Assembly (NCBI RefSeq): GCF_024506395.1 | Contig: NZ_JANIBO010000001.1 | Coordinates: 620,001-684,000, forward strand | Source of the DNA: Cetobacterium sp. NK01 | GTDB taxonomy: Bacteria; Fusobacteriota; Fusobacteriia; Fusobacteriales; Fusobacteriaceae | Direction: 5' to 3' | Length of the DNA: 64,000 nucleotides | Shown here: piece after piece, positions 16,316 through 64,000 of the stretch | How the letters are laid out: each line of letters begins with the position of its first letter | Position numbering within the stretch: position 1 is the first letter of the stretch | Made by a program: the position numbers and the translations under genes | Notes under the pieces: generated by a model | Told to the model about the DNA's origin: nothing | What the model saw: the letters and a program-made list of their open reading frames with translations, nothing else | Database searches by the model: none

Positions 16316-16398
16316 TGGTGCGAGAGGAGGGACTTGAACCCTCACGTCGAAACGCCAGATCCTAAGTCTGGTGCGTCTGCCAATTCCGCCACCCTCGC
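16316..16398 (-). tRNA. tRNA-Leu (anticodon UAG)
   Basis: Cloverleaf with long variable arm and CCA encoded at 16316-16318. The anticodon stem CCAGA/TCTGG encloses the loop CTTAGGA, giving anticodon UAG. Last gene of the cluster. Confidence 0.95.
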
Positions 16399-16400
16399 AG

Positions 16401-16476
<76 letters not shown>

Positions 16477-16501
16477 TTTTATTTACTTTATAAAAAATTA
16501 A

Positions 16502-16578
16502 TGGCGGGAGTGACGAGGGTCGAACTCGCGACCTCATGCGTGACAGGCATGCGCTCTAACCAACTGAGCTACACCCCC
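16502..16578 (-). tRNA. tRNA-Asp (anticodon GUC)
   Basis: Acceptor stem GGGGGTG pairs with CACTCCC, with CCA encoded. The anticodon stem CATGC/GCATG encloses CTGTCAC. Confidence 0.96.
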
Positions 16579-16583
16579 ATTAA

Positions 16584-16659
16584 TGGTGGAAACAACTGGA
16601 CTTGAACCAGTGACCCCCTGCTTGTAAGGCAGGTGCTCTCCCAACTGAGCTATGCTTCC
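16584..16659 (-). tRNA. tRNA-Val (anticodon UAC), copy 1
   Basis: Cloverleaf with encoded CCA and anticodon loop CTTACAA. Identical in sequence to the copy at 25987-26062. Confidence 0.96.
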
Positions 16660-16662
16660 AAA

Positions 16663-16737
16663 TGGTACCCCGTAGGGGAATCGAACCCCTGTTTATAGAG
16701 TGAAAATCTATTGTCCTTACCACTGAACGAACGGGGC
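16663..16737 (-). tRNA. tRNA-Glu (anticodon UUC), copy 1
   Basis: Cloverleaf with encoded CCA and anticodon stem ATAGA/TCTAT around TTTTCAC. Identical to the copy at 26066-26140. The first acceptor pair appears to be G-U. Confidence 0.96.
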
Positions 16738-16746
16738 AGTGGTAAA

Positions 16747-16822
16747 TGGTGCGTCATACTGGGCTCGAACCAGTGACAACACGATTAAAAGTCGTGTGCT
16801 CTACCATCTGAGCTAATGACGC
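16747..16822 (-). tRNA. tRNA-Lys (anticodon UUU)
   Basis: Acceptor GCGTCAT/ATGACGC, encoded CCA, and anticodon stem CACGA/TCGTG around CTTTTAA. Confidence 0.96.
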
Positions 16823-16831
16823 ATCTTTGTA

Positions 16832-16907
16832 TGGAGCGGGAGACGAGGGTCGAACTCGCGACATTCAGCTTGGAAGGCTGACGCTCTACCAACTGAGCTA
16901 CTCCCGC
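16832..16907 (-). tRNA. tRNA-Gly (anticodon UCC)
   Basis: Acceptor GCGGGAG/CTCCCGC, encoded CCA, and anticodon stem TCAGC/GCTGA around CTTCCAA. First gene of the cluster, directly downstream of the promoter. Confidence 0.96.
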
Positions 16908-25986: not shown

Positions 25987-26062
25987 TGGTGGAAACAACT
26001 GGACTTGAACCAGTGACCCCCTGCTTGTAAGGCAGGTGCTCTCCCAACTGAGCTATGCTTCC
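25987..26062 (-). tRNA. tRNA-Val (anticodon UAC), copy 2
   Basis: Identical to the gene at 16584-16659, including encoded CCA and the spacer to tRNA-Glu. Confidence 0.96.
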
Positions 26063-26065
26063 AAA

Positions 26066-26140
26066 TGGTACCCCGTAGGGGAATCGAACCCCTGTTTATA
26101 GAGTGAAAATCTATTGTCCTTACCACTGAACGAACGGGGC
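26066..26140 (-). tRNA. tRNA-Glu (anticodon UUC), copy 2
   Basis: Identical to the gene at 16663-16737. Its leader (26141-26163) can form a small hairpin around TTTT. Confidence 0.96.
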
Positions 26141-27831: not shown

Positions 27832-27965
27832 AAAAAAGCCTTTTATCTCTCCAGAAAGATAAAAGGCTTGTATCCTCTATAAGTCATCTTTCTGGAATTA
27901 GCACCACACCCTTTCGGTAGGTTGCTGAAACGTCATAGGGCCAGTCCCTCAGTCTCTCTTGATGA
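27832..27965 (-). promoter_or_regulatory. SAM-I (S-box) riboswitch with intrinsic terminator, controlling metK
   Basis: On the minus strand the leader carries the S-box core: AAGAGAG, then GAGGGACTGGCCC, GACGTTTCAGCAACC and GGTGCTAATTCC. A short P1 helix (TCATC/GATGA, 27961-27965 with 27884-27888) closes the aptamer. A 12-bp terminator stem (27837-27848 with 27857-27868) and T-run follow. CCAGAAAGAT at 27886-27895 is perfectly complementary to the ATCTTTCTGG read from 27851-27860, giving a clear antiterminator. SAM binding would free the terminator and stop metK transcription. Confidence 0.96.
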
Positions 27966-27986
27966 TTTTGTTTTTTTTGTAATTAA

Positions 27987-61507: not shown

Positions 61508-63220
61508 CTACATTCTCTCTAATGTGTTTATTCCTAAAAGGTTTAATCCCTCTTTCAATACTGCTGCCGTTCTTTCAGCTAATAACAATCTTGAATATAA
61601 AGTTTCATCTTCTTGATTTAATATTGGACATGCATTGTAGAAGCTATTGAATTTTTTTGATAACTCAAATAAATAATCAGCTATTAAATTTGGTCTACAA
61701 CTATCAGCTGCTTTCAATATAACTCCTGGGAATTGTGTTAAATGATGAGCTAAAGTTCTTTCTGTTTTATCTACAAACTTTATTGTAACATCCTCTTTAA
61801 CATCTTTATTCTGCTCTTTTGCTCTTCTTAATATAGATTTAATTCTTGCATAAGAGTATTGTAAATATGGAGCCGTATTTCCTTCAAAGCTTAAAATTTT
61901 ATCCCATTCAAAAATAACTGCTGTTTGTCTATTTTGTGATAAATCAGCATACTTTATAGCTCCTGTTCCTACAACTTCTGCTATATTATCTTTTTCCTCT
62001 TCTGATAATTCTGGATTTTTCTCATTTACAATTTCATAAGCTCTTCTCTTACCTTCATCTAAAAGTTCCTCTAATCTAATTACATTTCCTTTTCTAGTAG
62101 AGAACACTCCATCAGCAAATCTCATTATTCCAAACCAAACATGTTGCTTTTCAACATTCCATCCTAACATATCTGTAATTCTAAAAAATTGTCTAAAGTG
62201 ATCTTGCTGTCTCTCATCTGTTACATATATTAATTTATTTACATTATAATTAGCTAATCTAAATTTAACAGTTGCTATATCTGAAGTTGCATATAAAAAT
62301 GCTCCATCTTTCTTTTGAACAATACAAGGATGTAGTTTCTCTTCCTCTGGGAAAAATACAACTTTTGCTCCTTGATCTTCAACTGCTATTTTCTTATTTT
62401 CTAACTCTTCAACTACTCCTGGCATTAAATCATGATAAAAAGATTCACCATAATATGTATCAAAGTTTATTCCCATTCTATTATATAACTTTGCATATTC
62501 ATCTAGAGAAACTTTTATAAATTCTTGCCATAATCTATAATTTTCCTTATCACCATCTTGAAGTTTTTTTAACTCTTCTCTAGCTTGATCTTCAAGTTCT
62601 GGATTTTCCTCACTTTGTCTTGTAAACTCAACATAAACTCTTTCTAATTCTTCAATAGCATTTTCTTTATAAGCCTCTTGATTAAGCCAGTTTCTGTATC
62701 CTATTATTAGTTTTCCAAATTGAGTTCCCCAATCTCCAATGTGGTTATCTGCCACAACATTATAACCTAAATACTTATACATTCTTTTAATCGAATCTCC
62801 GATTATAGTTGATCTTAAATGACCAATATGCATTCTTTTTGCTATATTCGGTGAAGAGTAATCTATTATTACATCTCCTTCTATATTAAGGCCTTTAAAT
62901 TCATAATCTTCTTTTGAAATCTTTTTAACTAAATCTCCTAAATATGAATCTTTTAAAAATATATTTAAAAATCCTGGTCCTGCAATCTCTATTTTATCAA
63001 TTACACTATTTTCAACTATGTTATTTACAACATTCTCGGCAATAGCTCTTGGATTACCACCAATTATTTTAGAATTCATCATAGCAAAATTTGATTGAAA
63101 ATCTCCAAATTTTTCATTTGTTGCTACAGTTATCTCTATTGGTTTTAAATCTTTATCTGGATAAAGATTATTTACTGTTTCTAATAAAATTATTTCTATT
63201 TGTTTTTCAATAGTTAACAT
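61508..63220 (-). CDS. argS: Arginine-tRNA ligase
   Basis: A 570-aa class I synthetase. The HIGH-like motif is in MHIGHLRSTIIGDS and the KMSKS position reads FSTRKGNVIRLEELL, the usual degenerate form in ArgRS. The N-terminal Add-1 domain and the C-terminal DALR anticodon-binding domain (from about 450) are present. The ATG has AAAGGAG upstream. No promoter is visible in the 25 bp between it and the terminator of the upstream RNA, so expression probably depends on read-through. Confidence 0.97.
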   Translation of the reverse strand: MLTIEKQIEIILLETVNNLYPDKDLKPIEITVATNEKFGDFQSNFAMMNSKIIGGNPRAIAENVVNNIVENSVIDKIEIAGPGFLNIFLKDSYLGDLVKKISKEDYEFKGLNIEGDVIIDYSSPNIAKRMHIGHLRSTIIGDSIKRMYKYLGYNVVADNHIGDWGTQFGKLIIGYRNWLNQEAYKENAIEELERVYVEFTRQSEENPELEDQAREELKKLQDGDKENYRLWQEFIKVSLDEYAKLYNRMGINFDTYYGESFYHDLMPGVVEELENKKIAVEDQGAKVVFFPEEEKLHPCIVQKKDGAFLYATSDIATVKFRLANYNVNKLIYVTDERQQDHFRQFFRITDMLGWNVEKQHVWFGIMRFADGVFSTRKGNVIRLEELLDEGKRRAYEIVNEKNPELSEEEKDNIAEVVGTGAIKYADLSQNRQTAVIFEWDKILSFEGNTAPYLQYSYARIKSILRRAKEQNKDVKEDVTIKFVDKTERTLAHHLTQFPGVILKAADSCRPNLIADYLFELSKKFNSFYNACPILNQEDETLYSRLLLAERTAAVLKEGLNLLGINTLERM

Positions 63221-63244: not shown

Positions 63245-63474
63245 AAAAAAAAGGACTCGAAAGTCCTAAAAAGAATAACTCCAGTCTACCGCCTTCCTTA
63301 CGGTTTTGGTCGCCATTTCTTATAAGTGGTAACCAGATATTATCTATACACAGGGTCCGTGAAACAAGGGTTTCCGTGACTTTTCTGAACTATAAATAAC
63401 AGCGCCAATCCCAATAGCGACCTTAGGCCCAAAACCTCCAGATAATAGCGAGTAGACCAGAAATATTTATTCTT
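63245..63474 (-). ncRNA. Structured non-coding RNA of about 230 nt, candidate 6S RNA
   Basis: Transcribed on the minus strand from a consensus promoter (63481-63509) to a clear terminator (stem 63252-63257 with 63262-63267, loop TTCG, then nine T). The ends pair: AAGAATAA with TTATTCTT, and CTGGTCTAC with GTAGACTGG, then CGC/GCG, GGTTTT/AAAACC and GGTCGC/GCGACC, then TTATTTATA with TATAGATAA, and a terminal GAAAC/GTTTC hairpin. This is one long rod with internal loops and an asymmetric central bubble, the layout of 6S RNA. I see no T-box, SRP, RNase P or tmRNA core motif. The RNA call is strong; the 6S identity is tentative. Confidence 0.78.
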
Positions 63475-63480
63475 AAGACA

Positions 63481-63509
63481 ATTATATCACTTCTATATTA
63501 TTTTTTCAA
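63481..63509 (-). promoter_or_regulatory. Promoter of the structured RNA (and probably argS)
   Basis: Minus-strand TTGAAA (63509-63504), a 17-bp spacer and TATAAT (63486-63481). The start site is expected near 63474. Confidence 0.87.
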
Positions 63510-63544: not shown

Positions 63545-64000
63545 CTAAACTATTTCTGAATTATATGTTGAATCTAAATAAAGCTCTTCTAATTGCTTAT
63601 CATCAACTTTACTTGGTGCTTCTGTCATTAAACATTGACCTTTATTTGTTTTAGGGAATGGGATTACATCTCTTATTGATTGCTCTTTTAACATTACCAT
63701 TAACCATCTATCAATACCAAAAGCCAATCCTCCATGTGGTGGTGCTCCATATTTAAATGCATCCACAAAGAATCCAAACTTCTCTTGTGCTTCCTCTTTA
63801 GATAAACCTAACTTTTCAAATACTTTACTTTGAATTTCAGGATTAAATATTCTTATTGATCCTCCACCAATTTCAGATCCATTTAATACCAAGTCATATG
63901 AGTTGGTTCTAACTTCATCCATTTCTCCATCTAAGAATAACTGCATATCTTCAGCTTTTATTGATGTGAATGGGTGATGTTGAGCCTTATATCTTTGTTC
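63545..64000 (-). CDS. aspS: Aspartate-tRNA ligase, C-terminal part (start beyond window)
   Basis: The last 151 codons of a class II synthetase; the open frame runs off the window at 64000. The visible part starts in the bacterial insertion/catalytic junction ([14 protein letters not shown]) and contains class II motif 3 [13 protein letters not shown] and the family end segment [16 protein letters not shown]. This matches the bacterial (AspRS, possibly non-discriminating) type, which would fit with the presence of GatCAB. Its stop lies about 35 bp upstream of the structured RNA promoter. Confidence 0.95.

What the first reader, a model, noticed from the sequence alone, without database searches (positions are those of the whole stretch)
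63245..63509. Rod-shaped RNA with own promoter and terminator between aspS and argS
A consensus promoter, about 230 nt of self-complementary sequence and a strong terminator mark an abundant small RNA. Its end-to-end pairing and central bubble resemble 6S RNA, which binds RNA polymerase. If not 6S, it may be a new class.
Basis: partly seen in the sequence, partly recalled or inferred. Interest (0 to 1): 0.75.

Follow-up and report, generated by a model that had tools for sequence, protein, structure and literature searches.

The report
Fusobacterial 6S RNA missed by Rfam
The sequence encodes the 6S RNA of a Cetobacterium-type bacterium, a small RNA expected to imitate an open promoter and hold RNA polymerase in check; it is a known kind of RNA, but so diverged in this bacterial family that the standard database model does not recognise it.

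Summary
A near-consensus promoter (11/12, extended -10), about 204 nt of self-complementary RNA and an intrinsic terminator lie on the minus strand between aspS and argS. The fold is 3.5-3.7 SD below shuffles. Promoter, RNA and terminator are conserved across the Fusobacteriaceae, and the rod has strong covariation (29 of 61 pairs with double changes; 213 such cells against 62 in shuffles). Rfam's 6S model RF00013 does not detect it directly. Homology to 6S is nevertheless shown four ways. (1) A covariance model built only from RF00013-positive fusobacterial 6S RNAs hits this locus at 122.5 bits, as the only match in the 3.1 Mb genome. (2) The reverse model, built from RNAs like this one, lands on all 26 RF00013 sites in the phylum. 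(3) It also puts its best match in a 2.2 kb piece of E. coli on ssrS. (4) RF00013-positive relatives carry the RNA in the same place, directly after aspS. I conclude that it is a divergent 6S RNA, one copy per genome, most likely sequestering the housekeeping RNA polymerase and templating product RNAs. RNA polymerase binding, abundance and product RNAs are inferred, not shown.

The parts
63481..63509 (-). sigma-70-type promoter: -35 TTGAAA (63509-63504), 17 nt spacer with TG, -10 TATAAT (63486-63481)
   Evidence: conserved in 54 of 55 relatives at 9/12 or better
63271..63474 (-). 6S RNA body (ssrS), about 204 nt; inferred 5' end near 63474
   Evidence: R1 213.3 bits at 63271-63474 (by construction, its sequence is in the training set); R2, built only from RF00013-positive RNAs, 122.5 bits at 63269-63471
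63448..63461 (-). 5' strand of the closing stem (CUGGUCUACUCGC)
   Evidence: pairs with 63280-63292; 13 pairs, 7 with changes on both sides in relatives
63280..63292 (-). 3' strand of the closing stem (GCGGUAGACUGGA)
   Evidence: aligns with the E. coli ssrS end GCGGCAUCUCGGA
63426..63436 (-). 5' strand of the helix next to the bubble (P2/downstream helix), GGUUUUGGGCC; invariant block, likely product-RNA template
   Evidence: nearly invariant in 31 relatives; pairs with 63302-63314; 7 of 11 pairs never vary, so pairing rests on the homologous RF00013 helix rather than on covariation
63302..63314 (-). 3' strand of P2, GGCGACCAAAACC
63413..63425 (-). 5' strand of the central bubble; candidate product-RNA start opposite U at 63425 (product would read 5'-AGGCCCAAAACC on the + strand from 63425)
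   Evidence: unpaired in the consensus; start site is inference from the invariant GGGCCUA and pRNA hallmarks in PMC8414754
63315..63327 (-). 3' strand of the central bubble (AU-rich, contains UUAUAAG), the place where other 6S RNAs carry the -10-like element
   Evidence: unpaired in the consensus; role from PMC8876501
63328..63412 (-). apical arm (helices 4-7 and terminal loop), with the conserved UCACG/ACGGA loop-closing helix
   Evidence: helices 4-7, 17 pairs with changes on both sides
63245..63267 (-). intrinsic terminator AGGACUUUCGAGUCCU + U run
63545..64000 (-). aspS (C-terminal part), upstream neighbour
61508..63220 (-). argS, downstream neighbour

Best explanation
This is the single-copy 6S RNA gene (ssrS) of a Cetobacterium-type member of the Fusobacteriaceae, transcribed from its own sigma-70-type promoter and ended by its own terminator. 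Shown here: the gene parts, a conserved covarying rod with a central bubble, and homology to RF00013 6S RNA. Inferred from homology: the rod mimics an open promoter; it binds RNA polymerase carrying the housekeeping sigma factor and blocks promoters; and it is released when the polymerase copies the invariant GUUUUGGGCCUA strand into a short product RNA, probably starting 5'-AGGCCCAAAACC.
For: R2, built from 19 RF00013-positive RNAs of other families, finds this locus at 122.5 bits over its full length, as the only match in the 3.1 Mb genome, E 6e-26. R1, built from 31 Fusobacteriaceae RNAs none of which passed RF00013, gives one match per genome in 95 of 98 Fusobacteriota genomes, and its matches coincide with all 26 RF00013 places. 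R1's best match in a 2.2 kb E. coli stretch is ssrS, E 3e-4. Two Fusobacteriaceae members bridge the gap, scoring 43.2 and 35.5 bits with RF00013 over model positions 1-187. Covariation: 29 pairs and 213 cells with double changes against 19.7 and 62 in shuffles; 95.6% of cells paired against 35-44% when slid. Gene order aspS-RNA is shared with RF00013-positive genomes, and aspS-RNA-argS with one of them. Promoter conserved. A primary sigma factor is encoded.
Against: RF00013 itself gives no match at this locus even at E 10. No expression, RNA polymerase binding or product-RNA data are available here. The hairpin in the 3' bubble strand seen in Leptotrichiaceae and B. subtilis is not evident. 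The canonical GG at product positions 4/5 or 5/6 would fall at 2/3 for the best candidate start.
Confidence: 0.95

Rival explanations
1. A new class of rod-shaped RNA, unrelated to 6S, that regulates something else.
For: RF00013 does not detect it.
Against: Reciprocal covariance-model matches at RF00013 sites, near end-to-end blastn alignment with several RF00013-positive genes, and shared gene order.
Confidence: 0.02
2. A cis-acting leader or attenuator of argS (such as a T-box): the RNA controls readthrough into argS.
For: It lies just upstream of argS and ends in a terminator.
Against: No T-box or other leader match. The RNA is kept where argS is not adjacent, in several Fusobacteriaceae loci (L069-L073, L085, L086) and in Leptotrichiaceae. 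Conservation runs the whole length with the 6S structure.
Confidence: 0.02
3. An RNA of 6S descent that has changed partner, for instance binding core RNA polymerase as Ms1 does, or that no longer templates product RNAs.
For: Sequence is far from RF00013; the 3' bubble hairpin is missing and the product-RNA start context is shifted.
Against: The bubble strands and P2 are among the most conserved parts, as expected if polymerase binding and templating are retained. Length is about 204 nt, unlike Ms1 at about 300 nt (PMC9130861).
Confidence: 0.05

Closest known systems
6S / SsrS RNA, Rfam RF00013 (E. coli ssrS, B. subtilis 6S-1)
   Same: Length, rod fold, closing stem motif CUG...UUCGC / GCGG.A...CGG, P2 helix, central bubble, apical arm, own promoter, usually one copy
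   Different: Scores below RF00013 reporting; neighbours are aspS/argS rather than ygfA (fau); no evident 3' bubble hairpin; candidate product-RNA start two bases nearer P2
Leptotrichiaceae 6S RNA (RF00013-positive, e.g. L022, L021)
   Same: Near full-length blastn alignment at about 61-66% identity; reciprocal covariance-model matches; the related loci L076, L077 and L087-L090 are preceded by aspS
   Different: They carry a 3' bubble hairpin (CCUGUAAC...UUACAGG) and GGGCUUUA in place of GGGCCUA
Ms1 RNA of Actinobacteria
   Same: Rod with central bubble, binds RNA polymerase
   Different: About 300 nt with extra end hairpins, binds core enzyme (PMC9130861); no sequence link tested or found here

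Membership tests
6S RNA (RF00013) | About 180-200 nt rod: closing stem, central bubble, apical arm | tested here: met
   Consensus structure with 29 doubly changed pairs and 95.6% of cells paired
6S RNA (RF00013) | Common ancestry with accepted 6S RNAs | tested here: met
   R2 built only from RF00013-positive RNAs: 122.5 bits, only match in the genome; R1 hits all 26 RF00013 places; ssrS of E. coli E 3e-4
6S RNA (RF00013) | Operational database criterion (a detection threshold, not a biological property): RF00013 score of at least 46.4 bits at this locus | tested here: not met
   No match at E up to 10; relatives L074 35.5 and L075 43.2 bits
6S RNA (RF00013) | Independent gene with housekeeping-type promoter | tested here: met
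6S RNA (RF00013) | Binds RNA polymerase holoenzyme with the primary sigma factor | not testable with these tools
   Only the presence of an RpoD gene was checked
6S RNA (RF00013) | Serves as template for product RNAs | not testable with these tools
   Invariant template block identified; start site inferred only
6S RNA (RF00013) | High cellular abundance, rising in stationary phase in most species | not testable with these tools
   No RNA-seq data at hand
T-box / argS leader | Match to a leader family and fixed position upstream of argS | tested here: not met
   No Rfam match; RNA present without adjacent argS
Ms1 RNA | About 300 nt with additional end hairpins | tested here: not met
   About 204 nt, one rod plus terminator; definition from PMC9130861

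The most novel reading that the evidence does not exclude
The Fusobacteriaceae 6S RNA is a functionally distinct branch: without a 3' bubble hairpin and with a shifted product-RNA start at GGGCCUA, it is released from RNA polymerase by a different step from E. coli- and B. subtilis-type 6S RNAs.
Probability: 0.15. Interest if true: 0.5.

Novelty: new member of a known kind. Interest (0 to 1): 0.35.

Why it matters
Rfam's 6S model rings in only 26 of 98 Fusobacteriota genomes, while the model made here finds one copy in 95 of 98. Most of the Fusobacteriaceae would therefore be annotated as lacking a global RNA polymerase regulator that they evidently have. Fusobacterium nucleatum and its relatives are studied for disease links, and published RNA maps can be checked at once for this RNA and its product RNAs. 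The alignment could be added to RF00013.

Tried and rejected
RF00013 on the window at gathering and at E 10: nothing at the locus. Other weak Rfam matches there (sbrA, preQ1-II, snoRNAs, E about 1 or worse, far below gathering scores) are chance. Viral contigs searched with ArgS gave nothing. Plus-strand folding is weaker (z -2.6). An argS leader was rejected because the RNA is kept without argS. Literature: no held paper naming 6S RNA in fusobacteria was found. The F. nucleatum dRNA-seq and sRNA-interactor papers and the 6S surveys (Wehner 2014, Barrick 2005) are not in the library, so prior mention of a fusobacterial 6S RNA cannot be excluded.

Full report
What is there. The window lies in a Cetobacterium-type genome: the closest ArgS matches are 83-99% identical and come from records named Cetobacterium. 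On the minus strand, between the end of aspS (63545) and the start of argS (63220), there is a promoter TTGAAA-17-TATAAT with a TG extension (63509-63481), an RNA body of about 204 nt (63474-63271) and an intrinsic terminator (63267-63252 plus U run). The RNA folds end to end, 3.5-3.7 SD below dinucleotide shuffles. The plus strand is weaker.

Rfam at face value. RF00013 (6S) gives nothing at this place at the gathering score or up to E 10. Taken alone this would leave the 'new class' reading open.

Relatives. DNA similarity finds the RNA in nearly every Fusobacteriaceae genome held, from 100% down to about 66% identity. In 55 aligned loci the promoter is kept in 54 (9/12 or better), its TG in 47, and a T run near the end in all. 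The 200 nt between them are better conserved than the flanks: mean column identity is 0.61-0.79 in the body, against 0.41 upstream of the -35 element and 0.28 downstream.

Structure. Thirty-one non-redundant Fusobacteriaceae RNAs, chosen without the two that RF00013 can see, were aligned (A1). The consensus is a rod with 61 pairs. It has 29 pairs and 213 cells with changes on both sides, against 19.7 and 62 in shuffles; 95.6% of cells pair, against 35-44% when the partner strand is slid. The closing stem (CUGGUCUA/UAGACUGG, changing to CUGACCUA/UAGGUUGG and others) and the apical arm covary strongly. The helix next to the bubble, GGUUUUGGGCC/GGCGACYAAAAC, hardly varies, so its pairing rests on the same helix being part of the RF00013 consensus.

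Link to 6S RNA, tested in both directions. RF00013 finds 6S RNA in 26 of 98 Fusobacteriota genomes. Model R1, made from A1, finds exactly one place in each of 95 genomes and coincides with every one of those 26 places. Model R2, made only from 19 RF00013-positive RNAs of other families, finds the window locus at 122.5 bits over its full length and nothing else in the 3.1 Mb genome, E 6e-26. R1 on a 2.2 kb stretch of E. coli MG1655 puts its best match, E 3e-4, on ssrS. Two Fusobacteriaceae sequences lie between, scoring 43.2 and 35.5 bits with RF00013 over the whole model. Gene order agrees: RF00013-positive L075 has aspS-RNA-argS, and L076, L077 and L087-L090 have aspS directly upstream.

How it most likely works. 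By homology (PMC8876501) the rod imitates an open promoter, with the -10-like element in the 3' strand of the bubble; here that strand (63327-63315) is AU-rich. RNA polymerase with the housekeeping sigma factor would bind it and be kept from promoters; the genome encodes RpoD. Release would come from copying the 5' bubble strand and P2 into a product RNA. The block GUUUUGGGCCUA is nearly invariant. Known product RNAs carry GG at positions 4/5 or 5/6, and a conserved adenine lies immediately upstream of the start in the 6S RNA (PMC8414754). The U of GGGCCUA (63425) satisfies the second rule and gives 5'-AGGCCCAAAACC, but with GG at 2/3. I regard this start as the best guess, about 50%.

Rivals. 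A leader of argS is unlikely because the RNA persists where argS is not adjacent and no leader family matches. An Ms1-like RNA is unlikely by size and architecture. A new class is excluded by the reciprocal model matches.

Novelty. It is a member of a known family in a lineage where the standard model fails. Whether fusobacterial 6S RNA has been named before could not be settled: the key papers are not held and the open library shows no mention.

Noticed in passing
window 27881-27968 (-): SAM riboswitch (RF00162), 71.9 bits
   Followed up: no
window 16319-16907 and 25990-26140 (-): tRNA clusters (seven and two genes)
   Followed up: no
Fusobacteriota genomes G000-G097: RF00013 misses 6S RNA in about 70% of the phylum; models R1/R2 recover it. 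No match in G001, G056 and G066 (G056 is only 62% complete, G066 86%).
   Followed up: partly
L069-L073, L085, L086: A Fusobacteriaceae genus (g14) keeps the 6S RNA with a consensus TTGACA -35 element but without aspS or argS next to it: the gene neighbourhood has changed
   Followed up: partly
L011: A Fusobacteriaceae argS locus (DDQV01000111.1) without a detectable RNA upstream of argS by blastn
   Followed up: no
L044, L053, L057 apical loop: One group of Fusobacteriaceae carries about 10 extra nt in the apical loop (around CUUAAAGCUUAAG), a lineage-specific hairpin extension
   Followed up: no
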